Of a DNA stretch of 64,000 nt, positions 12,221-59,635 are shown piece by piece (within the stretch, counting starts at the first letter, position 1; every line of letters starts with the position of its first letter). This stretch comes from Spinacia oleracea (taxonomy: Eukaryota; Streptophyta; Magnoliopsida; Caryophyllales; Amaranthaceae), in the NCBI RefSeq assembly GCF_020520425.1, contig NC_079487.1, forward strand, positions 129,106,385 through 129,170,384. The letters run 5' to 3'. The translations under genes were made by a program, and so were the position numbers. Below the pieces are notes generated by a model. That model worked only from the letters and a program-made list of their open reading frames with translations, made no database searches and had not been told where the DNA came from.

Positions 12221-14574
12221 GGTAGTGCAGGATGTTTTTTCTTCTTTGATTCGTGGATTAGTCTAAAATAAAACAGAAATAGCATTTCTAGGAGTTTAGA
12301 GTAATTCAAGAATGCAAAGAGAGATAGCTGAATTCCTGGCTTGTGAAAATGTAGGCAGTTGTACATATATGGAAATTCATTTCCTGCTATTTATCTCTTT
12401 CTTACCTTTATTTGCTGCTCTTTTTAGTGATTACATTACTTTTGTAATGTGTTGTGATTCGATGTGCTTGTGATCTTGCAATTATCCTCACCAACAGTGG
12501 TAACATTCACAGAGTATTTCTTATAGCCGCTTTATATATTCTTTATGTATAAACATCATCCTTGAGAAGCTATGTTAGAATCTTGCATGAAAAGTAAGTA
12601 CTTTTGCTCTTAAAACAGATTACAGTAGCGGTTGTTTACAACTTCCATTGTTTTTTTGTGTGTGTGTCTGTGCTTCAAGTTTCTAGAGCAAATTGCAGTT
12701 TCCTGGATGGTTAAGAGTCTTGTGACTCTTGTGCTAGCTTAGGTTGGAGGAAAGACTTGAATGTGGATTCTCTTTCTTTTTTTTGACTTGTTATCATTTG
12801 CCACGTACTTTCTCACACAACTTGGTTTTTCATTCATTAGTTGTCTTTTAATTAAGTTACAAATAGCAGCTCCCTGGAGTAATGAACGCGTCATTTGCTG
12901 TGTACGTTAGCATGTTTAGAAAATTAGAACTTGTGTGTGAATGTAGTGAAGTCTGCTACACACAAGGATCCTTGACAGCAGTCACTAGCAGTGGTGCATT
13001 CCTGACCAATTTGGTTGCAACTCATACCACTCTCAACCATAGCTCCAGGCTCCAGCACCTTCAAGCATTATATCAGATATAAGTGCTGTTAAAGGTGTCT
13101 GCTGTGTAGCGCCTGCGATACCGCTACCGCTGCTGCACATCACCATTACAATCATGCTTATTGAAACCATAACTATCTTCATCTTGCTCGCTTTTGTTAA
13201 TTAAATCTCTTGAAAGTTTAGTTGTTGATGGATAGTTGCTCTACGTGCACCACGGTCCATAGTCCACGGATTGTGGGTTGAGACCCCAATATAGTAAACA
13301 TACTTTATATCCAAGAGACCCCAATATAGTAAACATACTTTAAATGGTGATAGACCCATTTCTGGCTAGCCAGCTCTAAGGTAGTTGGTAGTTACAATTT
13401 CAGAGTTTGCTTAATTATATGCAATACAAAAAAGACTCGAAAGCCAGCTAATTTAGCCCAAAATAGCGGGTTTTGAACACTGAAAAAGGCCCAAAGTTTT
13501 GGCCCGACCTGATATGGTGGACAAAATTTCTTGGCTACGGGGCTAGTGGACTCTCTCTCTCTCTTGATTACGGGGTGCGGCACAGGCCTGTATTTAACAA
13601 GCAAGAAACCCTACATAATTGATTTCACCAAGTAGGGACTAACCTCATTCGGTCATGTAAAACAGACTCTCTCTCTCCTAACATATAAAATTGGTAATTT
13701 TATTTTAGGATGTAACCCATGGGGCTTCTATGTGGTCAATTTCTTCTCTTGTATGGGTTTATACATGACCTGGTGAATTTATCAAATAGTAAGCTGAAGG
13801 GGTGTGGCCGTGTGGGCTTGGTTATGCTAATGTGAAATTTTATGTAATACTTCCGTTTCAAAATGATATTTCGTTTTATTTATGGATAATGGAGTGCCAA
13901 TTTTTGTCTGTGCCTAATAGACGAAGGAACTCGACCTTATAGAGTTTACGTATACTAGCGATTGTATTTTTTTTATTTTAAGGGAATATGGCTTATTTAA
14001 AAGTGTATTATCTTTTTGACATAAGATTGTACTAAAAGAAACAACTAAATAAAATTGTATGCACCTGCCAATACAGAGTTATGCACCAAATTTCGCGCGC
14101 ATACAAAAATGTTGCTAAATGGTATCACATTTCTGACTTCGAGTCACGTCCGTTGCAATATGAACTCTCTTTTTCTAGCTTATAGCATATTAGCATCTGA
14201 ATATAATCCAATTCTGTTCACCAAAACTCCCCAAAGCAGAATTGGATTACTTTTGAAAGAAGAAAAAAAGCTGTTACAAATAGAAAATGTGATATGGACC
14301 AACAATTGAATCGGTGCAACACATCCATCATCTCCTCATCACGGACAAGAAAAACACCTAAAATTATAAACGAAAATTTAGATTTATACACCGATCATCC
14401 GACCATCCGACCATCCAATTCAATCATCATTCTGCTCACTCCTACTCCCTATGGGATCAAGCTGACTGCACTATTTTAGCTAAACAAGGATGATGGTCGG
14501 ATCTGGCGACATAAGTCGGATTTGAGAAGATTCATCCAACACATCAACCGATCAATTGATCCATCCCCCTACCC
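12221..14574. other. Intergenic after PIF1, no gene seen
   Basis: This holds the likely PIF1 3' UTR and AT-rich sequence with decayed MITE pieces. Examples are 'gtgcaccacggtccatagtcc' near 13247, related to the 25275 MITE, and 'cttccgtttcaaaatgatat' near 13851, a Stowaway end. Short ORFs at 12882, 13392 and 14055 show no family features. Confidence 0.55.
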
Positions 14575-15365: not shown

Positions 15366-15807
15366 ATAGTCAAGTGATGTCTTAAAACTTCTCCGTAGAG
15401 TACGGGGTTGGAAAATTTGGAAGCTCCAAATATCTAAATGTCAATTAATTTGGGATTGGCAAATTCGAACTTGCATTATATTTGTCATCAAGGTGTGCCA
15501 ATTTCCACATCTTTTTGCGGAACTCATTTAATTGATTGCCAAAATAAGTGAGATTCCCAGGTTGTTTTTTGTTATTATATGCTATAATCATTTAATTACA
15601 GTAGAGATTAAAATCTAACAAATACGTAGTACTACTCCTATACATAATACATGGGCCAAAGAAATAAACAATTGAAACAAATAATAAGATAACCTACTCT
15701 TAAACATTGGGCCAAAGAAATAAACAAATGACGTATCCTTACTTATTTCTTGAATCTTGAATGCGTAATTGCGTGTATCAATCATCAATATTCAATAATG
15801 CATGCAT

Positions 15808-15860
15808 GGGATTATGGGTTATAAAAAGGGAGTGTACCCTCCTCTTCAGAACACACAAAC
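15808..15860 (+). promoter_or_regulatory. Core promoter of double-knottin gene 1
   Basis: A TATA box (TATAAAAA, 15820-15827) lies about 80 bp upstream of the start codon. The surrounding block, including 'gggagtgtaccctcctcttc' and 'acacacaaac', recurs almost unchanged at 25798-25860 before the second gene. Confidence 0.8.
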
Positions 15861-15904
15861 ATAACAATTAATTAATTAATTAATTAATTAATTAATTGAT
15901 TATT

Positions 15905-16309
15905 ATGGGTGAGATGAAGGTGAAGAAAATGGTAGTAGCAAGTAAGGTGTTTCTCCTACTGATGATAATTGCCGCAATAGTTGGCACTTCTTGTGTAGCT
16001 GCCCAGAATATTAATTCTGGGCAGCTAGAGGAGCAGCAGCAACAACTGCTCTTGAAGATTTCAAACATCATGCTTGAAGGTGGTCGAGGCAATATTGATA
16101 TTGATAATAATCTAATAAGTTGCGTAGCAGGTGGTCAATCTTGCGATGGTGGGTTGCAGTGTTGCCCAGGCAGTATTTGCACATTTCTAAAGCCTCTTGG
16201 AAGTAGGACATGCGTATGGTGCCCTGGACCTGGGAGTTCATGTGGTGCATTTGACTCATGTTGCCCCGGTTACACCTGTAGTAGTTATGTTACCGGTACA
16301 TGCCATTAA
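15905..16309 (+). CDS. Secreted double-knottin peptide 1
   Basis: This 134-residue precursor is predicted to be secreted; its function is probably defence, by analogy with Caryophyllales six-cysteine knottin antimicrobial peptides. After MGEMKVKK comes a hydrophobic signal segment (about 9-31). A Gln/Glu/Leu-rich spacer (SGQLEEQQQQLLLKISNIML) and a small Gly/Asp stretch follow. Then come 12 cysteines in two consecutive domains: C-x6-C-x5-CC-x4-C-x10-C, two residues, C-x6-C-x5-CC-x4-C-x7-C. The spacer may be a propeptide. The start is the first ATG after the TATA box; the frame is open further upstream but has no ATG there. Two intact relatives and a pseudogene follow on the same strand. A protease-inhibitor or signalling role is also possible. 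Confidence 0.85.
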   Translation: MGEMKVKKMVVASKVFLLLMIIAAIVGTSCVAAQNINSGQLEEQQQQLLLKISNIMLEGGRGNIDIDNNLISCVAGGQSCDGGLQCCPGSICTFLKPLGSRTCVWCPGPGSSCGAFDSCCPGYTCSSYVTGTCH

Positions 16310-17494
16310 TCTAAACATATTATCCTTTATCGGAGAATATATATTATAATGTGTGTGTGTTACTCCGTACTACTAATCTACTATCGTTGCATGGAAACAT
16401 GACGTACTACTATCCTATTTTATGATCTCTATGCCAGTATGCATAGTTCCGTCCGTGTTTTGTTTTTCGAGTTGCATTTCAGTTTATGTTTAAAAAATAT
16501 TATGTATGTTGTAATCCATTGTATGAATAAAACTACCCCTATTGTTAGTAATGCATTTCTTTCGTCGTTTTTATTTTTTATGTTTGGTATCATGAACGTT
16601 TCCGCGAGATTGGTTTTTCAAAAGTTGAAACTTAAAAAATTAATGGTTGATAAAAAAAAAACCTATTGAGTAGGGGGGAGATGGGTAAAAATAGGTAACA
16701 ATAATACGGAGTAGGCCGAAGATGGGTAGGAAATAAGGTGCATGATATAGATTTCTGAAATTTAAGCTCATACGATACTAAAATTGATAAGTCTATATCA
16801 TGGTCGAAACTTAAAAAGTCATAAGTCTGTATCATGGTATAAACTTAAAATTCATAGGTCTATACTGTGGTACAAACTTAAAATGAATAAGTCCGTGAAT
16901 TTTTTTCGGACAAAAAAAATCACGTCTTCCATGTGAAGTCGTCGGCCTGTAGAATCAGACATATAACAATTTTCACGCATTTTCTCACTGGGGACGTTAG
17001 CTTTGGTGAGGTGGACGGATTGATATTCGAAGGTGGCGGTGGCCAGAGGTGGTGAAGTAAAGGTGGGCTATGGTGGTGGGTGGCTGTTTGAGTTTAGTGT
17101 AGTATATTGGCGGAGTTATGTGAAACGTAATTCATTGATAATTAAAGATTTATATGAGATTGCAATAGTTATCAACATTTCAAATCCAATATCAGATTGA
17201 TCAAATGGATATGTCCTCACAACTACATGCAACAACTAAGTTAGATCGTCTTCCAAAAAAACTGTGTTTTTAGTGGTATGTGCGAGAGATTGTCCACGAT
17301 GCAAGATACTCAAAGCAAAATAAGCAATTTTTTGTTAAGCCTTGATAAATTTTAGCCTTGTATTGATATTAGCCTCACATTTTAACTAAATGTTGGGACT
17401 CATATGCTCAGGCCGGTCTTATAATTAGCCTCACGCCCTCACATTGTATAAACGCTTAATGACAGAAATACAAAACCAAGAACTATCATTTCCT
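16310..17494. other. Intergenic, no gene seen
   Basis: Knottin 3' flank followed by AT-rich sequence. A few near-repeats of 'cttaaaattcataggtctatactgtgg' occur around 16740-16900. The region ends at the target duplication of the LINE. Confidence 0.5.
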
Positions 17495-17748
17495 AACAAA
17501 AATAAGGGTAATTAACTAGTAAAAGAGTTAAGTGAAAGTGAGAGAGAATGTTAGAGAGAGAAAGTGAGAGAGAGCCCCCCTAACCGCCGGATTCCAGCAG
17601 CAAGCCCATCGGTCAGCCAGTATAGTTCTCACTCAGCCACAGCGCCACCAAACCACCCCAAACCATTCCCCAACCGACCAACGAGCCAAACGACACCAGA
17701 AACACCCACAAAGGATGCAAAACCACGACCAAACCATCCTATGCAGTC

Positions 17749-18855
17749 ATGGTCCAAGGAGTGACCCAAACCCCTCCACCTGGTTACCGACCTCTAGCCT
17801 CCCTGCAAGCCCTCACCTCCACTACCCCATCCCCAAATTATGACCCAACCATGGAAGCTTTCATCAGCCTCGACAAGGAGGAGGCAATGGTGCTCTCGGA
17901 GCAATGGATAAATTCACTCATCATCAAAGTGATAGGGAAATCATTTTCAGTTGATTACCTCAAAACAACCCTCCAAAGAATTTGGAAAACCAACCACCAG
18001 ATTCGCTTCATTGCCTTGGGCAAAGGTTTCTACAACATCTCGGTCCCGAATGAGGAAGTAAGGGAACACATCCTGTCACAAGGGTCGTGGTTCATTGCTA
18101 GCTACATGTTAATTGTTCAACCATGGATGCCAGGATTCATACCATCCCAAGCCATAATCTCGAAAGCCCCAGTCTGGGTTTCATTACCGGAGCTGCCAAT
18201 TGAGTTCCACTCGCTGCAGATGTTTCAAAGAATTGCAAGCGAAATTGGGACCTTCATCAAAACAGACACAAAAGCTCTTGAGCAAAACAGAATAAGGTTC
18301 GCAAGGATTCAAGTGTTGTTGGACCTAGCAAAACAGAGGAAAGAAGTAATATGGCTAGGAGCCTTCAAGCAATCCATCTACTATGAGGAGATACCACACT
18401 ACTGCAACCAGTGTCAGTCAATTGGGTACCGGAGTGAAAGATTCCCGCATTATCCGGTTGATAAAGGGGAAACAGAGGACGGCGCGGAGGAGGTTGAGAA
18501 GGACAAAAATGAAGGAGTAGGGCAAAACGTGGCACCATCACAGGCCACCAATGAGGAGGGAGAAAACACCAACCCTTGGATCCATGTTCCCAGCAAAGAG
18601 ATAAAACAAAAAAGGGAAACAAAAAAGCTAAGTACAAAAAACAAGAAAAGTGCAGAGCAAAAGGTGGGAGAAACTCAGGAAGGAAAAAGGGGGAAAAACA
18701 AAATACCAAGAGCTAACCGAAGAAGTCAACTACAAGTGTGGGTAAATACCCAATCTCGGTCCACAAAGTCACTACAAGGCTATCAGCCCAACTTGCAAAA
18801 ACAGACCAGCAGAAAGCCCAATGGGGGAAGAAGAACCAAGAAACGGGCCCAATGA
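17749..18855 (+). CDS. LINE ORF1: DUF4283/zinc-knuckle nucleic-acid-binding protein
   Basis: The protein has 368 residues. The N-terminal half matches the plant DUF4283 pattern (…MVLSEQWINSLIIKVIG… through …GSWFIASYMLIVQPW…), typical of ORF1 proteins that bind RNA in plant L1 elements. A zinc knuckle follows (CNQCQSIGYRSERF, about 222-235), but the usual His and last Cys are Tyr and Phe, so it is degenerate. The C-terminal third is Lys/Arg/Gln-rich and probably disordered. The chosen ATG lies 239 bp inside the element. A frame starting at 18738 overlaps the end and continues beyond; it may hold the original C-terminus of ORF1. Confidence 0.8.
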   Translation: MVQGVTQTPPPGYRPLASLQALTSTTPSPNYDPTMEAFISLDKEEAMVLSEQWINSLIIKVIGKSFSVDYLKTTLQRIWKTNHQIRFIALGKGFYNISVPNEEVREHILSQGSWFIASYMLIVQPWMPGFIPSQAIISKAPVWVSLPELPIEFHSLQMFQRIASEIGTFIKTDTKALEQNRIRFARIQVLLDLAKQRKEVIWLGAFKQSIYYEEIPHYCNQCQSIGYRSERFPHYPVDKGETEDGAEEVEKDKNEGVGQNVAPSQATNEEGENTNPWIHVPSKEIKQKRETKKLSTKNKKSAEQKVGETQEGKRGKNKIPRANRRSQLQVWVNTQSRSTKSLQGYQPNLQKQTSRKPNGGRRTKKRAQ

Positions 18856-19143
18856 AGATTGGGCAGGGAAATCAGTCGATTCTCGAAGTCCAAAAGCCAA
18901 AAGATAAATTCACCCCACCAACCACATTCAACCCCCCCTCCCAAACTGCATTAACTCCCACCAACCTTGTTGAAACCCAACCGACCATCCAACCAATCAC
19001 AATCCAGAAAGACCAAACGTTTACTTTCACCTCCATACAAAATCACCCTTCAGAAGGAAACCAAAAAATCAACCCCCCTCTTTCTCTCTCTCCCCACAAT
19101 CTCTCTCCAAGCCAAAAACCAGAAAACTCCAAAAACCCTAAAA

Positions 19144-19896
19144 ATGTCGAGCGACATGGACACGGACATGTTCGACTTTGGAAACGAGTCGGAGGACAGC
19201 GATGCTTCAATTCCACTACCATGCATCCGCCGGTATTTCAAACGGCGATCAACCCCCAACCCAAGGTTCACTCTTCCGTTCCAACCTCTCCCACTGGACT
19301 TTCCATTCCCGATCATCGAACCCACAGAAGATCTGCCTCCCAAGCACTATGTCTGCAAAGAAGCTCTAATTCCAACCTACCCGGAGTTCAACTTCAACAA
19401 CATGAGATTCACTCTCAGACTGGCGAACGAATGGATGGACGTCGGTGCGGAAGCGATAAGGGGCTTCATCTTGGCATCGCACTGGGTGGACTTTCCATAT
19501 CAAGACTTGGAAATGTCGCCAAAAAGAGGAGGTTCGTTGATGCCTGTGCACCTACCGGATCTCAAGACTGTGAAGGCTCTCTCTCCTGGCCTGGAGAAAT
19601 TCATCAGATGGTGGATGAAGACAAAGGAAGCGAAGGAGGAACACCTCATCTTCCCAACGGAGCTGGAGTTTCTTTCCGATCCAATACCGATCTTCCCGCA
19701 AGTCAGGAAAACTTGGCAACTAACCAAAAGGGCTCCCCTCAAGGGAACATTCGGCGAAGCGACCAACGCCCTAATGGTAATCTCCACAACAGAGGATCTC
19801 CCACAGGTGGAGATCAAGGTGATCTCGGTGAAGGAGATAGAGGAAGGGGATTGCGAGATGGAATTGGAGTTTGTATCCAGGAAGGAAGTCCTATGA
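19144..19896 (+). CDS. Extra LINE ORF between ORF1 and ORF2
   Basis: This 250-residue ORF begins MSSDMDTDMFDFGNESEDSD and is in the same frame as ORF1 and ORF2 but separated from each by stops; it ends 21 bp before the ORF2 ATG. The start is acidic, then comes a compact region with many Trp, Phe and Pro (LANEWMDVGAEAIRGFILAS, FIRWWMKTKEAKEEH), and the end is acidic again. I do not recognise a domain. It could be the detached C-terminus of ORF1, a captured host segment or a true third protein. It is uninterrupted although ORF2 is broken, which makes it notable. ATG context 'aaaaatgtcg' looks usable. Confidence 0.6.
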   Translation: MSSDMDTDMFDFGNESEDSDASIPLPCIRRYFKRRSTPNPRFTLPFQPLPLDFPFPIIEPTEDLPPKHYVCKEALIPTYPEFNFNNMRFTLRLANEWMDVGAEAIRGFILASHWVDFPYQDLEMSPKRGGSLMPVHLPDLKTVKALSPGLEKFIRWWMKTKEAKEEHLIFPTELEFLSDPIPIFPQVRKTWQLTKRAPLKGTFGEATNALMVISTTEDLPQVEIKVISVKEIEEGDCEMELEFVSRKEVL

Positions 19897-19917
19897 AGCA
19901 AGAGGAGTCAAGAATTC

Positions 19918-22900
19918 ATGAACAAGATAGACCCCTCCACTCAGAAGAAGTACAAAGAGTTCTCGAGAACTCACAAAATCCCTGACCCGATGATCATTGT
20001 CGCATGGAACTGCAGAGGGATAGCTCGCAGAGGGTTCCAAGCTAACTTGCGCTACCTGTATGATGAACACTTGCCCCAAATCCTCATCCTGACTGAAACC
20101 AAAACTAGCCCAAAACACACTGAGCGCCTTATGAAGAAGACCCATTTTGAGAACTATGTACTGGCTGAACCGTATGGGCTCTCTGGCGGAATAATAGACA
20201 TATGGAGCCCCCAGTTCATCAATTTTCAGATGATTGGGAAGGATCTCCATGCTATTCACGGCGTTGTGGAGGTAAACACTTCTAACCCTTTTCAATTTTT
20301 ACTTTCAGCAATTTATGCTAGTACAAAGTTTAAAAGTAGAGTAGAATCATGGCATGAATTAATAGATATGTCCAACCATGTTTCTGTGCCTTGGGTTGTA
20401 ATGGGAGATTTTAATAAAATCACTTGCCAATCGGATAAACTTGGGGGAAATAGAATAAAACAGTACAGAGCTGATAGGTTTGTAGATGCAATGAATGAAT
20501 GTGGCTTGATAGATGCTGGTAGTGTAGGAAGTAGATTTACATGGTTCAACAAGCAAAAGGACAATCCCATTTATCAAAAATTAGATAGGGCTTGGTTAAA
20601 TATGCATTGGCTAAACATGTTTCCTAACACAACTGTTCATAACCTCCCCAGAGGGACATCAGACCATAATCCAATTAAACTTATGACTGACCACAAAGAT
20701 GAAAGGGTTGTCCATACCCACCCTCTGTTTAAACTGGAACCACTATGGTATGCTGAACCAGGATTTATTGACATGGTTAATGAGAACCTGAATACTGATT
20801 GCTCTAGCCTTGTTCCTAAACTAAATAATATTTCAAAAAAAATGTCTTCTTGGGCAAAGCAAAACATAGGGAATTTCCAAAAAAAAGGGAGAACTCTGTC
20901 TGCTAGGTTAAAAGGGATTCAAAAGGCCCTTGAAACTAGACCAACCAGTAGGCATCTACTGGAATTAAATGAGGAACTCTCCAAGGAGCTGAGCCTAATT
21001 TATGAACTGCAAGAAGCCTTCTGGATGGCCAGGGCAAGGTCTAATTGGATCAAGAGTGGGGATGCTAATACTGGATTCTTTCATAAGTCAGTAATCATAA
21101 GGAGGAGAAGAAATAAGATCTCAAAACTTAATTCTGATGTTGGTGTTAGTGTTGAAGGACCTGAACTAGTTCCCCACATTGTCTCCTATTTCACTAAACT
21201 CTTCACCTCTGAAAGCACTGTTTCCCCATGTGAGGACCAACATTACACTAATGAAATTAGTATAGACCACCCAACCTCCATTGAGGAAGTAGGAAGAGCA
21301 GTTTTTCAATTAGGAGCCCTCAAAGCACCAGGTAAAGATGGCCTCCATGCCTTCTTCTACCAACAACATTGGGGAAATCTTTGGCAAGACACCTATAACT
21401 TTGTAGATAGCATCCTCCAGAATAGGTTCTTCCCCAACTCAGTGAATGATACCACCATCTGCATTATCCCTAAGTCTGAACACCCAGAAACAATCAAGCA
21501 ATTCAGACCCATCATCCTTTGTAATGTCAACTACAAGATTGTTTCCAAAGTCTTAGTGAATAGAATCAGACCTCACCTTGGTAACCTAATTTCTCCCAAT
21601 CAGAATAGTTTCCTCCTAGGGAGAGGTTGTGAGATAAACTACATAGTTTCCTCTGAAATTCTACACTCCATGAAAACCAGGAAAGGCAAATTTGGGTGGT
21701 TTGCTTTTAATATTGATCTAGAAAAGGCCTATGATAGGTTGGAGTGGAATTTCATTAGGTTTTGTTTAGCCAGAAAAGGTTTCAGCAAAAACTCCTGTGA
21801 CCTGATTATGAACTGTGTAGCCTCCCCATCCACATCCATCATTGTTAATGGTCAACCATCTCCCAGTTTTAGAACTTCCAGAGGTATTAGACAAGGAGAC
21901 CCTTTATCACCATACATATTCATCCTTTGCATGGAATACCTTGCTGACCTCATCACAGAATCAGCAACAAAAGAGGACTGGAAACCCTTCTGCCTTAGGA
22001 GGAATGGCATCCCAATAACTCATCTCATGTTTGCTGATGACCTCATTCTCTTTGGGGACACTTCTAGCAAAACTCTTCAAAGCATAAGAAATGTACTTGG
22101 GAAGTTTTGGGAGGTTTCTGGCCCAAAAGATGAACAATGAAAAGAGTAAAATGTACTTCTCAAAGCATACTCCTCAAGAACAAAAGGATCTGTTCTGTTC
22201 AGCCCTAGAAGTCCAACCTAGCCCAGACCTAGGTACTTACCTTGGATTCCCCTTGACTGATAAGAGGCCAACAAAGAACCAAACTGAATATGTCTGTAGG
22301 AACATTAAAAGTAGGTTGGCCTCATGGAAAGCAAAATGCCTGAGCAAAGCTGGAAGACTAGTCCTCATTAAGGCCTCCCTCACTGCCATAGCCAATTACT
22401 CCATGCAAGTACTTTATCTCCCCAAGAAAACCCTAAAAACAATTGACCAAATCTGTGCAAAATTCTTGTGGGATTCTGAACCTCAAGCCCAGAAAACTCA
22501 TCTAGTAACTTGGCTTAAATCCTGTGGGGATATGAAATTAGGGGGGCTAAGTATCAGAGCAGCAATTATTATGAACCAAGTTTTAATGGCCAAACTCTGC
22601 TGGAAGTTTGACACAAACACAAACCTGGCCAGTAAGCTTGTGAAGGATAAGTACATTGAGAACAGACCCTACCCCACTCCCTTCCACAAGGGTTCTAATA
22701 TATGGCAGAATGTTGGGAAAGGGTGGGATCTATACCAAAAGTTTTCTGCTTGGTACATTGGGGATGGGAAAAATATCAACCTCTGGCATGACAATTGGAC
22801 AGGAAAAGGTCCCCTTAGATCTCTAGTGGTTGGTCCAATGAACACAGGTGAGGAAAACCAAAAACTCAGTAGCATTATAAGTAATGGGAAGTGGAACATC

Positions 22901-24084
22901 AAGTACCTTTCCTTCATCCTCCTTGCTGACCTAGTCCTATGGATTCAAGCCATCCCTCTACCCCAATTTGGAAGAGATGGCCCCTACTGCTCCCTTACCT
23001 TAGGCTTAAAGTTTGACTCAAAAACTGCATATAACACCATTTGGAGGAACCTCTTCCCTGAACTTTTACCAAATGACAAATGGAGTTATATCTGGAAAGC
23101 CAGATGCCCACCCATGATACAATTCTTTCTCTGGCTCATCCTATGGAAAAGGCTCCCAACAGCTTGCCATTTAGCCAGCAGGCACATCATCCCTAACCCC
23201 CACTGCATCTTTTGTCCCACTGCCCAAGAAGACATGGCACACATTTTCCTACATTGCCCTAGAGCTCAGGAAATGTTGATTTTGAATACTGGGTTCTTGA
23301 AAATTTAAAAACCAACAGTACTGATCCAAATCCTAACAAACCCCTCCCCCAAACTCTGTTTGCCTTTTGCTTGTGGAGGATATGGATCAGGAGAAACATG
23401 TGGGCTTTTCAAAAGGAAAATAAAAACATCACCCCCTGGTGTCAGCAAACCATGTGGCTCTCAAATGAGTTTGAACAGTTCCACACCACCCAAGTTAATC
23501 AGCCAAAGCCAATGCATATAGAACCCAAACCCCAATCTCAGTTTTTTATAAAATGTGATGCCACCTTTTGCAGTACCACACTCTTTGCTTCCTATGCTAT
23601 TGTATGCAGGGATCCAAATCACATATTCATAGCAGGTGTAGCTCGTACTTTCACATCAAACTCAGCAAAGACTGCAGAAGCACAATCAATCCTTCTTGCA
23701 GTCTCCTGGAGTGTCAACAACAACTGGCAAAACACAACAATATACTCAGATTGTAAAGCTGCAGTACAAGAGCTAAATGATGACCAAGCACCAACTACAA
23801 ACCTCACTAACTTGTATGGAAAATGCAGGGCATTGCAAAGAAGCCACGGGAGCCTATGTGTGAAGTTCCAAAGAAGAGAGCAACTCTTGGAGGTGGACTA
23901 CGTGGCAAAGAAGGCCAAGGCCCGGTTGAGTCTGTTGGATCAAGGCGTTAAAATTTCCCCCCCACCCATCTTAGCTAATGATATCTCTAGTAACAATGAA
24001 ACTTATTTTTTGGGAGCATGCTTGCTTCATAATTATGCCATAAGTGGCTGTATTTTTGCCTCCGAAAGGAGTGGGGCATCATGA
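19918..24084 (+). pseudogene. LINE ORF2: endonuclease-reverse transcriptase-RNase H, frame-broken
   Basis: The polyprotein cuts target DNA and copies LINE RNA. In order: an exonuclease-endonuclease-phosphatase domain (VAWNCRG, ETKTS, GDFNKI, TSDHNPI), reverse transcriptase (KAPGKDGLHAFFY, AFNIDLEKAYDRLEW, SRGIRQGDPLSP, and catalytic FADD near 22030), the zf-RVT region (WSYIWKARCPP...CIFCPTAQEDMAHIFLHC), and an RVT_3 RNase H (KCDA, AEAQS, SDCKAAV, VDYVAKKA). The frame from 19918 ends at 22140, overlapped by the continuing frame at 22091-23308. A shift near 22124, where an extra C lies in 'ggcccaaaag', explains this. A second shift near 23280 moves RNase H into a third frame (to 24084). There are no other obvious breaks, so inactivation is recent. 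Confidence 0.88.
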
Positions 24085-24165
24085 ACAAACCGTTACAACC
24101 TTTTGATGTTTATATTTAAATAAAGTGACTCGTTTTCAACCAAAAAAAAAAACAAAAATAAGGGT

Positions 24166-25270
24166 CTGTGTATATACAGAGTAATATACAATAAGTTGTA
24201 AAGTTGAATTTTCTTTCTCAATTGTAATTTATTTGTATTGTTTCAGTAATCTCATTCACACCAAAAAAAAAAAAAAAAAAAAACGGGTGGTAGTTACAAT
24301 CGCTAGGCGAACGGTATCCAGTAGTTTGTAGATGGGAGTAATTGCCTAATGTTAATAATTGGGGGTCATGTTAGATTTAGCGGGTAGACATTATTGATGA
24401 GTACAATAAATGAAAATAGTGTATGATAGCAGATAGATGCAATAAACAAATCAAAGGAAATCTTGAATTGGGGCCATTTATGACAAACACCATTTCAACG
24501 TCATACATTTCATCTTATCGACCTTTCATATTAAGTCATCCTAATGAGTGACCCTGATTGAATACAAGAAATCCAACGGTAAAGATCAAAAAGTAACCAT
24601 GATTACGAAATTATTGTAGTCATTATAAAACTATCCTATAAAGCTTGATCGATCTTTTACCAAATTGGTTACTTTTACAATTTTATTTACCAAAATGGCT
24701 ACTTTCAAATTCTATTTATCAAACTGACTACTATTTATTTACCAAAATGACTATTTTGACTTTGAGGCAAAAAAAAAAAAACCAATAAAACCGACTTGGT
24801 TTGGTTTTTTTTTCTTCTATATATATATATATATATATACAGTGAACTGGTTTTTTTTTTACTGAAAAACATAAATTACAAACCAAAGGGTATTTGTAAA
24901 AAAAAAATAACTTGTACCAAAAAAGTACTTAGATATACTAGTACCATGACTATCATCACACTGGGTCAGAGCGCGTTCCAAATTGGATACAATATATATC
25001 GGTCGTTATAGGCCTGTCTTTTCCCTCTAAGTTGACACAATGTAATGCAGTATAAGCATCAAGCTCAACCGTGTCCAATTCGATCATTAACATCAGGCAC
25101 TCCTACATACGAAGTACTTACCAATTGTCCTCTTGGAATCTTCAATCGAAAAATATTAGGGTTTATGAATATCAATAGTCAATTGGCCAGACTCATGCAG
25201 TAACATCGATCAAATTTGGTATAAGAAAAAATAAAAAGAACCCAAAAATATATATAAAAAAGGGAGCAAT
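24166..25270. other. Intergenic with a MULE end fragment
   Basis: From about 24652 to 24850 the sequence ('gatcttttaccaaattggt' and 'accaaaatgactattttgac') matches the left end of the MULE at 37390, but no matching right end follows. A (ta)n microsatellite lies near 24819. No gene was recognised. Confidence 0.6.
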
Positions 25271-25274
25271 CCAT

Positions 25275-25545
25275 GGACTATGGACCACGGTGTACGGTGA
25301 TCATATATAGTGCACCAAAAGAACATAGGTGCATAAGCAGAAGAACATCATACTACGATAAAAGAACATGCGATATAATATAACACTTTTTTGTTATAAA
25401 AAATAATAATATTATTTCACTATTTATTAAAAGTATAAATAAAAAAAAATCATGTTCTTTTCACGTAATCAAATGTTATTTTAATTATATACTAGTGTTC
25501 TTAAGGTGCACCGTACTCACGGTGCACCATGGTCCACCTTCTAAA
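25275..25545. mobile_element. MITE with 'ccatggtccac' inverted ends
   Basis: 'atggaccacggtgtacggtg' on the left and the inverted 'caccgtactcacggtgcacc' on the right bound about 270 bp of AT-rich sequence with several 'aaagaacat' words. It resembles the MITE at 37073-37325, which has similar 'gtgcac' ends and 'agaacatat' interior. The exact target duplication is unclear. Confidence 0.55.
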
Positions 25546-25797
25546 TTGGAAAAGGGAGTCCCTAAAAGAAACCAAATCGTTTCATTAATCTAAAAAAAAA
25601 AAATCAAACCGTACCGGAATTTTTAACCCGTACGTGGTTATTAAGATTGAGAATTGAAAAGATAATGAAGAGCACTGTGAAGCTACAACCAAACATCAAT
25701 CTATGGCAGCCCTAGCTTGATCAATTAGCCTATTATCAAGAATACTTGGTGTATAGAGAAGTCGTCCCTACTTGCCAATTGCCATATATGTCATCAA

Positions 25798-25860
25798 TAA
25801 TGCATGGGATTATGGGTTGTATAAAAAGGGAGTGTACCCTCCTCTTCAAAACACACAAAC
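25798..25860 (+). promoter_or_regulatory. Core promoter of double-knottin gene 2
   Basis: TATAAAAA at 25820-25827 is followed by 'gggagtgtaccctcctcttc' and 'aaaacacacaaac'. It is nearly identical to the block before gene 1, so the duplicated unit included the promoter and the two genes may be co-regulated. Confidence 0.8.
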
Positions 25861-25880
25861 AAAACCAAAAAAACATAATT

Positions 25881-26294
25881 ATGATTATGGGTGAGATGAA
25901 GGTGAAGAAATGGGTAGTAGGAAGTAAGGTGTTTCTCCTGCTAATAATTGCCATAATGGTTGGCACTTGTTGTGTGGTTGCCCGGAATATTCAATATTCC
26001 GAGCAGCCAGAGAAGGAGCAACAACTGCTCTTGAAGATTTCAAACATCCTGCTTGAAGGTGTCCGAGGCGGCGGCGGTGGTGGTGTTAATGATGATAACA
26101 ATCTGAGTTGCTGGGCACAAGGCGAAGCTTGCAGCCCTTTTATTTCAAGCAAGCGGTGCTGTGACGGTTATTCATGCGATAGTTATAGAGGAAGATGTGA
26201 ATGGTGTCCAAGGAAGGGGGATTCTTGCGGTTTAAACGACCCTTGTTGCCCTGGCTTATCCTGCAATGATTGGCTCAAAGGTACATGCAGTTAA
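25881..26294 (+). CDS. Secreted double-knottin peptide 2
   Basis: This 137-residue precursor is a paralogue of the gene at 15905. It begins MIMGEMKVKKWVVGSKVF, with a signal segment ending near TCCVVA. A charged spacer (YSEQPEKEQQLLLKISNILL) and a Gly6 tract precede 12 cysteines: C-x6-C-x8-CC-x4-C-x6-C, two residues, C-x6-C-x5-CC-x4-C-x7-C. The second domain (CPRKGDSCGLNDPCCPG) is closer to that of gene 1 than the first, which has changed loops. The first ATG downstream of the TATA box is at 25881; the ATG at 25887 corresponds to the gene 1 start. The frame stays open further upstream, but that part is promoter. It probably acts outside the cell as a defence peptide; this is inferred from family resemblance only. 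Confidence 0.85.
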   Translation: MIMGEMKVKKWVVGSKVFLLLIIAIMVGTCCVVARNIQYSEQPEKEQQLLLKISNILLEGVRGGGGGGVNDDNNLSCWAQGEACSPFISSKRCCDGYSCDSYRGRCEWCPRKGDSCGLNDPCCPGLSCNDWLKGTCS

Positions 26295-26834
26295 AATCGA
26301 TCTTCAAATTCTGTCAGAAAAATATATCTGGCTATCCGATCCGTTCTGTTTGGAATTGCGAATTATCGCTTTGTATTTGTATTACTACTACTATACTACT
26401 TCTATCATTGCATATGAGTAGTACTTACGTAGGTTATGATTATTTATGTACGTGTCTTTCCCTTTCCCTTTCCCGTTGAGTACGTGTTTGGCAGTTGATC
26501 GATATATGCCTCATCGATCTTGTATTATTGTTGTTTATGTCGTCTATATGAAATAAAACAGTTTAATGTTGTGTTTTATATAATGAATTTATTTCTATTT
26601 CATGCATGTTCATCTTGTGATGCGATAATGACATAATGTGATCTAAGTACGTACATATGCATGCACGCTTAGACAAGCACGTACAGAGACAAGATAATTA
26701 ATCGTGCATTTTTTTAATTGTTTTTTAACCCATGTGGCGATGTACGTACGTTTATATTTATCCTTCACAATTACAACCGTTGCCAAAAGATTTCCCTTAG
26801 AAAATTAAAAAACCAAGATCTCGTATTAATTCTA

Positions 26835-27100
26835 CACTACAAAAAGTGTACTATTAATGATGGAAGATCCCGTCGTTAAATGCCAATAATCATTGATTAA
26901 TGACGGGTTTTCTATCGTGAACCTGTCATAAAAGGGGACCGTCGTTAATGTAAAATCTCGTCGTTAATCCGTCGTAAAAGGCATTTACGACGGTTGTTCC
27001 CGTTTTTGTTTGGTTGTTAGCCCCATCGCAAAATGTTTTTAAGATGGAATTTTTGACCAGTCATAATTAAGTTGTGGTTAAAGATACAATTTTATAGTTC
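26835..27100. mobile_element. CACTA-derived MITE (A), one end degenerate
   Basis: It starts CACTACAAAAAGTGTAC and contains multiple 'cgtcgttaa' and 'gacgg' words typical of CACTA (En/Spm) subterminal repeats. The right end near 27100 no longer matches. It lies in opposite orientation to the related copies at 28940 and 33089. Confidence 0.7.
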
Positions 27101-28140
27101 TATCTTTAATTTGCAACTAAATGAAGTATGAATTAACTTGTGTTACCGGCTTAATCGGGTCCGATCGAATGGTTATCTATTTAACAACGCGGATGCTGTA
27201 GCCTTATCCATTAAGTTATGGTATACGAAGTATTACATGTACTGCCTCCAACTACTTTCGAAAATTTGTGAGAAAAAAATGACGTGGCCGGCTATGGGCG
27301 GGGATATAGGAGAAATATAAATAATATTTCCTCCGTCTCGCACCGGTTTGATCATCAGTGCAGAGTTTAACACTTGAATTGACTGGGTCGTGTCAAGAGC
27401 GGGTCAGGCCCAAACTTAAATGAAATGAGTCGATTCGAATCATAATTTAAACAAGCTAGTCATATTCAATCAGGTCGAGTTATAGACCATTTAGCATAAC
27501 CCAACCCGGTCTGACCCATTTTTTAAAAAAGAAAATGAGTATACGAGTCACATGCAACCTAAAAATACTTGTAGTGTATATTATCAATCTATCGTACTCC
27601 CCATTGCACGTCACCTCTTTAAAAAGCATCCTCATTCGAAACAATGCTCGAACGTCATTTTACTTTCAATTTTTTCAGAAAGCATGCAAAAATTTTGATC
27701 TCCTTATGTAACTAACCTTTTGTAATTGTGTTCTTTAAGCTAATGTAAAAAAAAAAAAGAAAAAGAAGTATAAACATCACAAATTGAAAAAAATAATTCA
27801 AACAAGTGTCACAAATTAAGATCAACACAAAACAATAATAATAATTAAGCATCAAGTGGTGATTGTCCCTACTTTATTGAATGTGTATACCAAATTTACT
27901 GTTTCGCCAACAATAATAAAAATCAATAATAGCTAGTAGTAAAAGTCATACGTAGCAAATAGTGAAGTATATTAGACTAATAGTATGTACGTAGTAATCA
28001 ATAACAATGCATGACAACAATAGATATTGTCATATTGATGATTGAAATAATACTACATCGTTTTACAATATATGTAATGTTTTATTTTACAAGTATTACA
28101 ACGCGTTTCTTGAGGCATTCATATATCAAATTGTGAAATA
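27101..28140. other. Intergenic, no gene seen
   Basis: AT-rich sequence. Around 27390-27530 there is a block of 'gggtcaggcccaa', 'tgggtcgtgtc' and 'acccaacccggtctgaccc' words, which resembles the interior of plant hAT MITEs but has no clear ends. Confidence 0.45.
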
Positions 28141-28414
28141 AAATGTAATATTAGATAATGGTTATTTAAAGGGACTCTCCCCTCTTCAAAACACAATTTA
28201 CACATAATCCAAACAAATTAAATCAAAACAAAAAAAGACATGGAGAAATGGATACGAAGTAAGGTGCTTCTCTTGCTTATAATTGCTACAATGGTTGGCA
28301 CTAATTTTACTATGGCCGGCTGTCCGGAATGAATTTTCCGAGCAGCCGAAAATGGAGCAACTGCTCTTAATGATTTCCAACATCATGCTTGAAAGGAGTC
28401 GAGGCAATGATAAT

Positions 28415-28866
28415 TGTTAGAGTTATGGTGTATCTAGGTTTTTAGTATGTTTAGGAAACTAGAATTGTGTTAGTTTAGGAATCTAATAGAGTCCTAAACG
28501 ACTAAACCCATTATAGTTATGTTATGGTTTCCTATATAAACCAATGATGTAGCCATGTTATAATTAAGCGATTCAATTATATTATTGTCAATCAATATAA
28601 TAAGAAAATGAGACGACTCTTTTTTGAACTATATCATAAACAAGTCTTCTTCTATCATTCTCTGTAAACCCATCGGCTAGATTTGTTAGCCTCTCAAAAG
28701 TTGAGATTTTTTTTAATGGACACGGTATATTGTTGACAATGATAGTATGGTTTATTAGTGCGTTTTTTTTCTTTGTTGTTGTTGTTGTTCTGGTGACTTG
28801 CGATTTGGCGGGATGAGTTGGCTTTTGTGCGATGTACTGAGTTGTGTTAGTTTAGATATCTAATAA
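28415..28866. mobile_element. LTR-like insertion in the knottin pseudogene (old fragment)
   Basis: It begins TGTTAGAGTTATGGTG, has a TATA-like 'cctatataaacc' and AT-rich downstream words, and reaches a CA near 28642. This gives about 228 bp resembling a small Copia-type solo LTR, followed by about 220 bp of uncertain origin. No internal protein-coding region is present. It is a fossil; the family assignment is weak. Confidence 0.35.
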
Positions 28867-28939
28867 TAATAATCTAAGTTACCATCCGACCACTCTTGCA
28901 TGGTGGGATGAATTGTTGCCGAGCAGTATTTGCAAATTT

Positions 28940-29198
28940 CACTACAAGAAATTGTATCTTTAACGACAACCTAATTACGACGGGTCAAAAATCCCGTCGC
29001 AAAAGCCTTTTGCGGCTGGGTTAACAACCAAACAAAGACCGTCGCAAATGTCTTTTACAACGGGTTAACGACAAGATTTTTTATTAACGACGACCCCCTT
29101 TTATAAAGGGTTCGCGACAGAAAATCCCGTCATTAATCAACGATTACTGGCCTTTAGCGACGGGATCTCCGTCGTTAATGGTACAATTATTTGTAGTG
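28940..29198. mobile_element. CACTA-derived MITE (B), inside the knottin pseudogene
   Basis: It starts CACTACAAGAAATTG, ends TTGTAGTG and is flanked by a 3-bp duplication (ttt), as expected for CACTA elements. The interior has repeated 'gacgggt', 'cccgtcg' and 'ttaacgac' subterminal motifs. It has no transposase. Confidence 0.88.
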
Positions 29199-29354
29199 TT
29201 TTCAAAGGTTGTTGGAGGTCGATAATACATGCGTATGGTGTCTTGGACCTGAGACTCTGGAAGTTCATGTGGTGCACTTGACTCGTCTTGCCCCGGTTAC
29301 ACCTGTAGTAGTTATGTTACCGCTATTTAATGCAAATAAGTAGTACGAAGCATA

Positions 29355-29692
29355 AATTATGTGGCGAGGAAAGCCAAAGTCTGGTTGAGTCTGTTGCATC
29401 CAAGAGTTGCACCACCCTACCAACCCCTAAAAATTTGGTGATATCTCTTTAACTACGACATTTCTGTTTTGAAAGATAATTTTTTGTGCACTATAGCCTA
29501 TAGGTGCCATGATTGGCTGCGTATTTGTACCGTCTAGTAGTGAAAGTTGATGAAATCAGCACAAACTTATCTACTGATGTATATCTTGATGATTTAGTAA
29601 TCTTTTTTGAAGGTAAAATTTTTTAAAGGTAAAAAATGATTTATTAATCTAATGCAGTGACTCATTTTGACCAAATATATGTTAAAAAAAAG
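29355..29692 (+). mobile_element. LINE 3' fragment
   Basis: 'gtctggttgagtctgttg', 'tgatatctctt' and 'gtgactcattttgacca' align in order with the RNase H end and 3' UTR of the LINE ending at 24150. Only the last 340 bp or so remain, immediately downstream of the knottin pseudogene. Confidence 0.7.
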
Positions 29693-30242
29693 GATCACAA
29701 AAGAGATTTTATCAACTTTTTATATATATATAAAAAAAAAAAAAGAGTTCTTATTTTACAAATGAGTTTGCGAAAATTTTGTTTGGGTTATGAAGTTTAC
29801 GTGTACTCCTTGCGAAGGCCCAGGCCCAATAAAGCTGTCCAAAATTCTGCAAATGCATTAAAATATCCCACCCATATGGCCAAAGTCCCAAAATCACCTT
29901 CTCTTTTTCCTCTCCTGCTCCTGTGCTCCATAGCATTTGTTGCCATGAAAATTCAATTAGTCTTTCCTTTACATATTCGGCAAGCTAACTCTTGAAGTGT
30001 TTGATGTCCGCAAAGGCCACATTAACACATACGGAACAAGCCATGCATCATGCATGCATGGAGCCATGGAGGGATCGACATCATACATCGATCAAAAGTT
30101 TGGGGCCAATTAGTAATTAATGTACCACCATCACAATAACAAGTTAAAAAGCACTAATTAGGATCGGAAGGGGGTGGCTATTTTGTTTAAGAACCATAAA
30201 TGCATTACGTTAAGTTACGTTGATGAACATGCATCAAAAGTA

Positions 30243-30541
30243 CTCCCTCCGTCCAGGAATACTTGCACCGCTTTTTTTATAAAGCCGTCCCCCATTACTT
30301 GCACCGTTTCTATAAATGGTAAACTTTTATTAATATTATATCAACTACCCTCTTCACATGCCATTTTGTGGTCCCATGCACCCTATCCCTACCTTTTTAA
30401 AAAGTTGTCACATATCCCTATCTATATTAAAAAATACCCCACTATCAACTATCATCTAATTAAATAATAAGTCAATTACTTTGTATTAAACTCTGTGTTG
30501 GTCAAACCAGTTCAAGTATTCCGAGACGAGAGGGATCGGAG
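30243..30541. mobile_element. Stowaway-like MITE
   Basis: It starts CTCCCTCCGTCCAGGAATAC and ends with the inverted 'gagagggatcggag', and is flanked by TA. Length is 299 bp. The interior differs from the 2218/63477 family. Confidence 0.8.
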
Positions 30542-30974
30542 TAGCATACATAATACACATTTCGAAGAAATTTCATCAGATAGTACGTACATGAGTAGTT
30601 TTTTGTATTGGATTTTACAAACGTACATGGTACATCACATCATTCGATCAGATGCATTACAACATAACACAATAGATAATGCCCTATACTGATACAGGAA
30701 GCTTCGGACACACAAGAAACCAAATCAAACAGTCTTACTCAAACTAGTTTGAAAGCAACATCACCTTGGGAAGATGTACGTCGTCGTGGTTGTGAAAAAT
30801 GTAGTTTAGTTATAATCTTATTACAAAAGTCGAGCACAATCATACACATGTGAATTATATATTACATTTGTAATATCTCTTGTGGTCTCAACGCGCGCAT
30901 AGTCCAAAGCTAGATCGTCATGCCTATAGTTGTGTACGTAAGTGTATTTTGTCACGGGGTCCAACATGCAGGGT

Positions 30975-30982
30975 TATAAAAA
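30975..30982 (+). promoter_or_regulatory. TATA box of double-knottin gene 3
   Basis: TATAAAAA in 'gggttataaaaagaag' lies about 120 bp upstream of the gene body. The 'gggttataaaaag' core resembles the promoters at 15820 and 25820, but downstream sequence has diverged. Confidence 0.6.
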
Positions 30983-31097
30983 GAAGACTAATATCAGAAA
31001 TGATCTAGTATAATTAAAATCAAAGAAAACACAAAAAAAAGCTAATAAGTATATATGGGAGAGATGAAGAAATGGGTATTAGGGAAAATGGTGCGCG

Positions 31098-31430
31098 ATG
31101 ATAACTGTATTGGTAGGCGGCGCTTGTACTTTGGCTGAGCCGGAACAAGCAGAGGTAGTGGTCCCAATTTCAAACATCTTGGTCGAAGGGACTAGAGGCC
31201 GCGGCGGGGGTGTTGATGATAATCTGAGGTGCATAGCAATTGACTATGCATGTGGTCTGTATCTGAAAAAGGATTGTTGCACAGACAGCGTATGCAAAAT
31301 TAGCATAATTCCTGGTCGTGTTACTGGTACATGCCAAAAGTGCCCTGTACGTGGGGATTTTTGTAGTCTTTTTCGCCATTGTTGCTCTGACTACACCTGT
31401 GACGGCCTCTTATGGGGTCGTTGTTCTTAG
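31098..31430 (+). CDS. Double-knottin peptide 3, start region altered
   Basis: The body is a third double-knottin: after a short spacer (VVVPISNILVEGTRG) there are 12 cysteines, C-x6-C-x7-CC-x4-C-x12-C, two residues, C-x6-C-x5-CC-x4-C-x7-C. From 31098 the protein has 110 residues, but its N-terminus (MITVLVGGACTLA) is a very short hydrophobic segment. A family-like start (MGEMKKWVLGK) lies at 31055 in a different frame, so the usual signal peptide is not continuous with the body. Either translation starts at 31098 with a minimal signal, or the gene is damaged or misassembled here. The two domains are otherwise uninterrupted and their spacing is conserved, which suggests selection until recently. 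Confidence 0.65.
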   Translation: MITVLVGGACTLAEPEQAEVVVPISNILVEGTRGRGGGVDDNLRCIAIDYACGLYLKKDCCTDSVCKISIIPGRVTGTCQKCPVRGDFCSLFRHCCSDYTCDGLLWGRCS

Positions 31431-59377: not shown

Positions 59378-59635
59378 TTAGGGTCGCGGTGTGCATACAC
59401 CCGCAGATTCAGAATCTAATTTGCAAAAATAAGGTTGACAACACCGGTTGAGGAGATCATCACATGGTTGACCACTAGCTACACATTCAAGGCCAATATC
59501 ATTAGGAACAAGCGCTTCAAAGAGGTTGTTTGAGGGCAAGGGAAGCTCTCGGACAGCGGAGATTGATTGAGGTTTGGTTGCAACCCCTAAAAAGGCTATC
59601 AACATAAGAAATGTAACCACCTTCTTCATCTCCAT
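59378..59635 (-). CDS. Secreted single-knottin peptide A
   Basis: This 85-residue precursor has a signal peptide 1-27 (MEMKKVVTFLMLIAFLGVAT...SISA). A short spacer (VRELPLPSNNLFEALVPNDIG) precedes one six-cysteine domain: C-x6-C-x6-CC-x4-C-x9-C. The frame resembles Mirabilis Mj-AMP and Phytolacca PAFP-S knottins, which have C-x6-C-x8-CC-x3-C-x10-C, but the loops differ, so antimicrobial activity is a guess. On the minus strand a TATA box (TATAAAAG, at 59747-59754) lies about 115 bp upstream. A paralogue is at 63104-63355. Both starts share MEMK and both precursors have TKP in the signal region. Confidence 0.88.
   Translation of the reverse strand: MEMKKVVTFLMLIAFLGVATKPQSISAVRELPLPSNNLFEALVPNDIGLECVASGQPCDDLLNRCCQPYFCKLDSESAGVCTPRP

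What the first reader, a model, noticed from the sequence alone, without database searches (positions are those of the whole stretch)
15905..31430. Family of double-knottin secreted precursors
Three same-strand genes (15905, 25881, 31098) and one pseudogene encode signal peptide, acidic/Gln-rich spacer and two back-to-back six-cysteine domains separated by only two residues. Domain 2 spacing (C-x6-C-x5-CC-x4-C-x7-C) is identical in all three, while domain 1 loops vary (x5-8 and x6-12). Described Caryophyllales antimicrobial knottins known to me have one domain. The constant and variable halves suggest different roles.
Basis: partly seen in the sequence, partly recalled or inferred. Interest (0 to 1): 0.78.

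Follow-up and report, generated by a model that had tools for sequence, protein, structure and literature searches.

The report
Plant double-knottin defence peptide genes
A plant gene cluster encodes small, apparently secreted proteins built from two knotted, disulfide-rich units joined end to end; this layout is already known from cactus and purslane relatives, so the genes are real but mostly ordinary, with an interesting hint that related copies have exchanged their front halves.

Summary
Three same-strand genes (15905, 25887, 31098) encode two C-C-CC-C-C domains separated by two residues. Domain 2 spacing is 6,5,4,7 in all three; domain 1 varies only in loops 2 and 4. The motif is far beyond chance. 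The third gene has no intact signal peptide: its conserved start is out of frame.

The novelty claim fails. Signal, pro-domain, knottin, hinge, knottin precursors were published in 2017 as 'type IIb' bleogen precursors, found in Cactaceae, Portulacaceae and Talinaceae (PMC5743680). The idea of constant and variable halves is not supported: domain 1 versus domain 2 divergence does not differ significantly (permutation p 0.19-0.31).

New here: leader and domain 2 have conflicting histories (g1 resembles g2 in the leader, the pseudogene in domain 2), pointing to exchange near the pro/mature boundary. Most likely function: an uncleaved bivalent defence inhibitor with the fold of plant alpha-amylase inhibitors (wrightide, AAI); processing and target are inferred.

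The parts
15905..16309 (+). g1, double-knottin precursor (134 aa): signal peptide, pro-domain, D1, VW, D2
16121..16213 (+). g1 domain 1, loops 6,5,4,10
16220..16303 (+). g1 domain 2, loops 6,5,4,7
15820..15826 (+). TATA-like box, 85 bases before the g1 ATG, in the stretch shared with g2
15802..16090 (+). promoter + leader stretch shared with g2 (79.9% over 294 BLASTN columns, gaps included)
25887..26294 (+). g2, double-knottin precursor (135 aa from this ATG; an in-frame ATG lies at 25881)
26109..26198 (+). g2 domain 1, loops 6,8,4,6
26205..26288 (+). g2 domain 2, loops 6,5,4,7
25800..26069 (+). promoter + leader stretch shared with g1
28240..28408 (+). pseudogene, decayed leader piece (signal and pro-domain)
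28886..28939 (+). pseudogene, domain 1 piece
28940..29198 (.). short insert with CACTA-like terminal repeats (16 of 20 terminal bases match) and possible TTT target-site duplication, inside domain 1 of the pseudogene
   Evidence: ends; class assigned from recall of CACTA element ends
29227..29325 (+). pseudogene, domain 2 piece, close to g1
31098..31430 (+). g3, double-knottin ORF (110 aa); both domains intact, leader frame disrupted upstream (conserved start at 31055 is out of frame)
31230..31334 (+). g3 domain 1, loops 6,7,4,12
31341..31424 (+). g3 domain 2, loops 6,5,4,7
59378..59635 (-). K59, single-domain knottin precursor (85 aa): signal-like start, short pro-domain, one domain with loops 6,6,4,8 and CC-Q-P-Y-F-C
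63104..63355 (-). K63, single-domain knottin precursor (83 aa), loops 6,5,4,8 and CC-E-P-Y-Y-C
12924..13191 (-). K13, frameshifted single-domain relic whose leader carries the pro-domain motif ISDIMLEG (ISNIMLEG in g1)

Best explanation
A plant cysteine-rich-peptide cluster of single- and double-domain knottin precursors. The doubles are secretory precursors with the layout of bleogen type IIb. The signal peptide sends the chain to the ER, and each half folds into a cystine knot (I-IV, II-V, III-VI expected). The pro-domain is probably cut off at a conserved Asn just before domain 1 by an asparaginyl endopeptidase. The two-residue linker is very short and lacks Asn/Asp, so the halves most likely stay joined as a roughly 60-residue bivalent peptide. 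The likeliest role is defence by binding a digestive or pathogen enzyme; the fold is closest to plant cystine-knot alpha-amylase inhibitors. The cluster diversifies by duplication, decay and exchange of promoter-plus-leader segments between copies. Shown: architecture, clustering, fold-level resemblance, conflicting similarity of leader and domain 2. Inferred: secretion, disulfide pairing, processing, bivalency, enzyme target, exchange as the mechanism.
For: Architecture. Fold: a profile of the 8 intact domains finds wrightide R1 first of 57 PDB sequences (E 1.1e-5), with alstotide S4, alstotide S1 and AAI at E 0.013, 0.023 and 0.031. The AlphaFold2 model of the g2 mature region (3 sequences) has mean pLDDT 85 and pTM 0.56; Foldseek gives wrightide R1 at 0.7 A over 30 columns (target TM 0.90) and AAI at 1.2 A over 32 (target TM 0.74). 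Singles: K59/K63 match alstotide S4 best (E 0.0028) and have CC-x-P-Y-x-C, as do 3 of the 4 amylase inhibitors aligned there; the fourth has P-W. Processing: Asn stands 3 or 4 residues before Cys1 in 3 of 3 doubles while 0 of 3 linkers hold Asn or Asp. Asn cleavage is proposed for roseltide precursors, with the same pathway said to hold for amylase inhibitors (PMC5171801, passages). In hevein-type tandem precursors non-cleaved linkers are short (4-6 residues), cleaved ones 13-18 (PMC9127739 and PMC8512870). Exchange: g1-g2 89% identical in the leader and 68% in D2; g1-pseudogene 84% and 93%. Sites where g1 agrees with g2 only versus with the pseudogene only: 20:4 in the leader, 4:30 in linker + D2 (Fisher p 5e-8, sites treated as independent).
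Against: No Pfam family reaches its cut-off for any of the 3 doubles or 2 singles. The PDB profile hits also include many spider, cone-snail and sponge peptides, the second best being a spider toxin (E 0.00058), so similarity shows the fold more than the function. Foldseek has no match at E <= 0.001 and ranks a spider double-knot toxin first. The doubles lack the x-P-Y-x loop 3 in 6 of 6 domains. The linker rule comes from hevein-type lectins, not from knottins. The exchange claim rests on short alignments. The g1-g2 D1 alignment is no better than shuffles (z -0.8), so the D1 part (27 sites, 2:12) is unreliable. With g3 as fourth sequence informative sites are few (4/1/3 in the leader, 0/10/1 in D2). 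The step in synonymous difference is seen in g1-g2 but not clearly in g1-g3 or g2-g3. No expression data were available.
Confidence: 0.55

Rival explanations
1. The double precursor is a way to make two separate knottins from one message; proteases cut between the domains, as in quinoa chenotides or Momordica TIPTOP precursors.
For: Cleaved tandem precursors are known in plants (PMC8512870 section 2.8; TIPTOP rows in PMC11253845).
Against: The linker is two residues with no Asn/Asp in 3 of 3 genes; the cleavable linkers reported for hevein-type precursors are 13-18 residues.
Confidence: 0.25
2. The peptides are antimicrobial knottins like Mj-AMP1/2, PAFP-S or bleogen pB1, acting on fungi rather than on an enzyme.
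For: The cysteine motif is shared with these (PMC5743680); bleogen pB1 is anti-Candida.
Against: The domains are close to neutral: K+R versus D+E is 2/1 and 0/1 in g1, 4/3 and 3/3 in g2, 4/3 and 3/3 in g3. No chain named as one of these peptides is among the 57 PDB profile matches; whether each is in that copy was not tested.
Confidence: 0.25
3. The leader/mature contrast is due only to strong constraint on the leader and fast diversifying evolution of the mature domains, with no recombination.
For: Mature sequences of plant antimicrobial peptides are often more variable than the flanking precursor parts (PMC4695807, passage). g1-g3 and g2-g3 show no clear step in synonymous difference between leader and domains, and g1-g3 even keeps identical codons more often in the domains (18 of 21) than in the leader (10 of 18).
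Against: g1 and the pseudogene are more alike in D2 than in the leader while g1 and g2 show the reverse; divergence 42 of 150 v 8 of 84 sites for g1-pseudogene (p 0.0008) and 26 of 150 v 34 of 84 for g1-g2 (p 0.0002). Synonymous difference between g1 and g2 rises from pS 0.13 and 0.32 in signal and pro-domain to 0.78 and 0.64 in D1 and D2; identical residues use identical codons in 42 of 49 leader positions but 13 of 25 domain positions (p 0.004).
Confidence: 0.25
4. The cluster is largely decaying: g3 and the 28 kb copy are dead and, of the doubles, only g1 and g2 work.
For: g3 has lost the leader frame, the 28 kb copy is split by insertions, K13 is frameshifted.
Against: g3 keeps all 12 domain cysteines and an open frame through both domains, which suggests recent loss, use of another start, or an assembly error.
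Confidence: 0.4

Closest known systems
Bleogen type IIb precursors (pB12-pB15, Pereskia bleo; tandem precursors also reported from Lophophora, Pereskia aculeata, Portulaca and Talinum)
   Same: Signal peptide, pro-domain, knottin domain, hinge, second knottin domain; CXnCXnCCXnCXnC motif; no chitin-binding domain; occur beside single-domain precursors in the same plant (PMC5743680, abstract and passages).
   Different: Their sequences and hinge length were not in the text that could be read, so homology and linker length could not be compared. Here the linker is two residues and the genes are seen clustered in genomic DNA.
Cystine-knot alpha-amylase inhibitors (AAI, wrightides, alstotides, allotides)
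   Same: Best PDB profile match and close fold matches; loops 1 and 3 of 6 and 4 residues in the wrightide and alstotides aligned; pro-domain (PMC5743680); K59/K63 share CC-x-P-Y-x-C with alstotides S1, S4 and wrightide R1.
   Different: Those solved are single-domain; the doubles lack the P-Y loop; inhibition untested.
Chenotides / Sm-AMP1 (tandem six-cysteine hevein-like precursors of quinoa and chickweed)
   Same: Two six-cysteine domains in one precursor (PMC8512870 section 2.8).
   Different: Chitin-binding, long 16-18 residue hinge, cleaved in chenotides; C-terminal tail; no pro-domain described before the first domain.
DkTx (double-knot spider toxin)
   Same: Two linked knottins; top Foldseek match over the whole model (E 0.0048).
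   Different: Animal venom peptide; match is fold-level, TM 0.41/0.34, 27% identity, rmsd 13 A (domain arrangement differs); no claim of kinship.
TIPTOP precursors (Momordica)
   Same: Several knottin-type peptides in one plant precursor (table rows in PMC11253845).
   Different: 5 or 8 core peptides per precursor; that they are cut out and partly cyclised is recalled, with support only from a search-listing abstract.

Membership tests
Non-chitin-binding six-cysteine hevein-like peptides (6C-HLP, bleogen sense) | CXnCXnCCXnCXnC cysteine motif | tested here: met
   8 of 8 intact domains in the window
Non-chitin-binding six-cysteine hevein-like peptides (6C-HLP, bleogen sense) | No chitin-binding motif (SXXG in loop 3) | tested here: met
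   Loop 3 is four residues and not S-x-x-G in 8 of 8 domains; read by eye from the alignment, motif as given in PMC9127739
Bleogen type IIb precursor | Signal - pro-domain - mature - hinge - mature | tested here: met
   g1 and g2 meet it, signal judged by hydropathy only; g3 meets all but an intact signal peptide
Bleogen type IIb precursor | Sequence kinship with pB12-pB15 | not testable with these tools
   Sequences not in the readable text; no plant sequence collection is searchable
Bleogen type IIb precursor | Occurrence in Caryophyllales (order of the three reported families) | not testable with these tools
Cystine-knot alpha-amylase inhibitors | Knottin fold with loops 1 and 3 of 6 and 4 residues | tested here: met
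   disulfide pairing itself not measured
Cystine-knot alpha-amylase inhibitors | x-P-Y-x in loop 3 (seen in 3 of 4 inhibitors aligned; not documented here as a strict requirement) | tested here: not met
   Doubles: 0 of 6 domains; singles K59 and K63: 2 of 2
Cystine-knot alpha-amylase inhibitors | Proline-rich with at least one cis-proline (PMC4695807, passage) | tested here: inconclusive
   The six domains of the doubles hold 1 to 3 prolines each, counted by eye; cis configuration cannot be told
Cystine-knot alpha-amylase inhibitors | Inhibits alpha-amylase | not testable with these tools
   needs assay
Cleavable tandem precursors (chenotide, avenatide type) | Linker of 13-18 residues with protease site | tested here: not met
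   Linker of two residues (VW, EW, QK) in 3 of 3; rule from PMC9127739 and PMC8512870
Pfam families | Score above the curated cut-off | tested here: not met
   0 of 3 doubles, 0 of 2 singles

The most novel reading that the evidence does not exclude
The double knottins stay joined as bivalent inhibitors, a plant counterpart of the bivalent spider knottins, and the cluster evolves by cassette exchange: a promoter-signal-pro segment of about 290 bases is copied between paralogs with a break near the pro/mature boundary, so that new knottin payloads are put under a shared control and delivery cassette.
Probability: 0.3. Interest if true: 0.55.

Novelty: new member of a known kind. Interest (0 to 1): 0.33.

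Why it matters
It places tandem-domain (type IIb layout) and single-domain knottin genes side by side in genomic DNA, with a two-residue linker that predicts an uncleaved bivalent peptide. Of the tandem plant precursors in the papers seen here, chenotides and avenatides are reported as cut apart and wheat-germ-agglutinin-type lectins stay joined; for bleogen type IIb I saw no statement either way. A permanently joined knottin pair would be a natural scaffold for avid or dual-target inhibitors. The conflicting similarity of leader and mature region offers a compact, testable example of how plants may swap payloads under a common delivery leader.

Tried and rejected
Positive selection on domain 1: pairwise Nei-Gojobori dS in the domains is 0.82 to infinite, so no dN/dS claim is made. 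Tree of domains: mean identities outside shared cysteines are 0.32 within D2, 0.15 within D1, 0.21 between D1 and D2, 0.17 D1 to singles and 0.14 D2 to singles, over 21-25 positions a pair; too little to order D1, D2 and the singles. Dickkopf, ion-channel-toxin, UPF0506 and conotoxin Pfam matches: all below cut-off, treated as shared cysteine patterns. DkTx as a relative: best whole-length Foldseek match but E 0.0048 and rmsd 13 A; taken as a layout analogy only. Model of the single-domain K59 with K63: mean pLDDT 57, not used. The pdb_via second look was not available. Alstotide paper PMC4692237 is not held. Literature searches. Papers seen: PMC5743680 abstract and passages; PMC9127739 abstract and one section; PMC8512870 abstract and section 2.8; PMC4695807 passages and section 2.4.2; PMC11253845 passages; PMC5171801 passages; PMC5731061 passages; PMC5478723 passages; PMC13172734 abstract. 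All others: search listing only. Changed on re-checking: the exchange test is now quoted from leader versus D2 alone, because the D1 alignment is unreliable; the pooled figures (47:7 against 6:42, p 9e-15) are given in the full report with that warning.


Full report
What is there. The window (35.3% GC, no Ns) looks like plant nuclear DNA, judged from a DUF4283/RT/RNase H LINE, a MULE transposase, an LRR receptor-like kinase, a WD40 protein and a PIF1 helicase. Three + strand genes encode double knottins: g1 15905-16309, g2 25887-26294 (an earlier in-frame ATG at 25881), g3 31098-31430. Loop lengths are g1 6,5,4,10 then 6,5,4,7; g2 6,8,4,6 then 6,5,4,7; g3 6,7,4,12 then 6,5,4,7; the two residues between are VW, EW, QK. 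A six-frame scan for the motif returns 8 single and 3 double hits, all in knottin genes; 60 windows simulated with the same dinucleotide transitions gave 1 single and 0 double hits in total.

Corrections and additions. g3 does not have the signal peptide of g1 and g2: the conserved start at 31055 leads into another frame, and the ORF from 31098 begins with a short, weakly hydrophobic stretch. The 28 kb copy is a pseudogene in pieces, with one insert whose ends look like a CACTA element. On the minus strand lie two intact single-domain knottin precursors, K59 (85 aa) and K63 (83 aa), 44% identical to each other, and near 13 kb a frameshifted single-domain relic whose leader carries ISDIMLEG, close to the ISNIMLEG/ISNILLEG/ISNILVEG of the doubles. 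The cluster therefore mixes single and double precursors.

What it works like. No Pfam family reaches its cut-off for any of the 3 doubles or 2 singles. A profile of the 8 domains against PDB sequences puts wrightide R1, a cystine-knot alpha-amylase inhibitor, first (E 1.1e-5), with alstotide S4, alstotide S1 and AAI at E 0.013, 0.023 and 0.031 among 57 sequences; a spider toxin is second (E 0.00058), and most of the others are animal toxins or sponge peptides. K59 and K63 together find alstotide S4 best (E 0.0028) and have CC-x-P-Y-x-C, as do 3 of the 4 inhibitors aligned there. The AlphaFold2 model of the g2 mature region (mean pLDDT 85, pTM 0.56, 3 sequences) matches wrightide R1 at 0.7 A over 30 columns and AAI at 1.2 A over 32; the spider double-knot toxin is the top whole-length match but with rmsd 13 A, and no match has E <= 0.001. 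The single-domain knottin fold is well supported, the target claim is an inference, and the doubles lack the P-Y loop in 6 of 6 domains.

Processing. In 3 of 3 doubles an Asn stands three or four residues before the first cysteine, and 0 of 3 linkers contain Asn or Asp. Roseltide precursors are thought to be cut after Asn, and the same paper says that this pathway was also observed in precursors of amylase inhibitors; roseltide loop 4 varies from 4 to 13 residues (PMC5171801, passages). In tandem hevein-type precursors the cleaved linkers have 13-18 residues and the uncleaved ones 4-6 (PMC9127739; PMC8512870). By that rule the two knottins should stay joined; the rule was not derived on knottins, and an Asn in so Asn/Asp-rich a stretch is weak evidence by itself.

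Evolution. Between g1 and g2 the 100 bases before the ATG are 91% identical over aligned positions, the leader 89%, D1 65% (alignment no better than shuffles) and D2 68%; between g1 and the pseudogene the values are 73%, 84%, 84% (D1 piece, 43 positions) and 93%. Sites where g1 agrees with g2 only, against with the pseudogene only, number 20:4 in the leader and 4:30 in linker + D2 (Fisher p 5e-8, sites treated as independent); adding promoter and the poorly aligned D1 piece gives 47:7 and 6:42 (p 9e-15). With three sequences this compares branch lengths, not topologies; with g3 as a fourth, the split counts (g1g2|psi-g3, g1-psi|g2g3, g2-psi|g1g3) are 4/1/3 in the leader and 0/10/1 in D2. g1-g2 synonymous difference steps up from 0.13 (signal) and 0.32 (pro) to 0.78 (D1) and 0.64 (D2), and identical residues keep identical codons in 42 of 49 leader positions against 13 of 25 domain positions (p 0.004). 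Against this, g1-g3 and g2-g3 show no clear step (pS 0.63-0.68 in signal and pro, 0.50-0.90 in the domains), and g1-g3 keeps identical codons in 10 of 18 leader and 18 of 21 domain positions, g2-g3 in 13 of 20 and 9 of 23. That is what an exchange limited to g1 and g2 would give, but it also shows how noisy these short stretches are. Exchange of a promoter-leader segment, or formation of a chimaera, near the pro/mature boundary is the simplest reading; rate shifts confined to one lineage and one region remain possible. Recombination within plant defensin-like families has been reported before, as few events (PMC5731061, passages), so the process would not be new in kind.

Known or new. The layout signal - pro-domain - mature - hinge - mature is the published type IIb precursor of bleogens pB12-pB15, and tandem precursors were also found in transcriptomes of other Cactaceae, Portulacaceae and Talinaceae (PMC5743680, abstract and passages), all three in the order Caryophyllales. 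Nine literature searches of an open-licence library, of which only the top rows were listed, showed no title or abstract start about uncleaved tandem knottins in plants; no claim of absence is made. I file the genes as new members of a known kind, by layout; sequence kinship with the bleogens could not be tested. What raises interest above zero is the mixed genomic cluster, the two-residue linker with its clear prediction, and the leader/mature conflict.

Noticed in passing
17626-24084: LINE-type retroelement between g1 and g2 (DUF4283, weak endonuclease match below cut-off, reverse transcriptase, zf-RVT and RNase H-like ORFs), possibly recent since long ORFs survive.
   Followed up: partly
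53683-56226 (-): Long open MULE/MuDR-type transposase ORF with SWIM zinc finger.
   Followed up: no
10634-12220 (+): PIF1-like helicase ORF whose N-terminus holds three near-identical repeats, perhaps an organelle-targeted Pif1.
   Followed up: no
48388-50370 (-): LRR receptor-like kinase encoded in one open frame.
   Followed up: no
15996-16027 and 25975-26009: Short imperfect inverted repeats in the pro-domain coding region of g1 and g2, seen as self-matches on the opposite strand.
   Followed up: no
31341-31424: Domain 2 of g3 contains an RGD tripeptide in loop 1; likely chance.
   Followed up: no
52921-53361 (+): GRF zinc-finger ORF, 146 codons.
   Followed up: no
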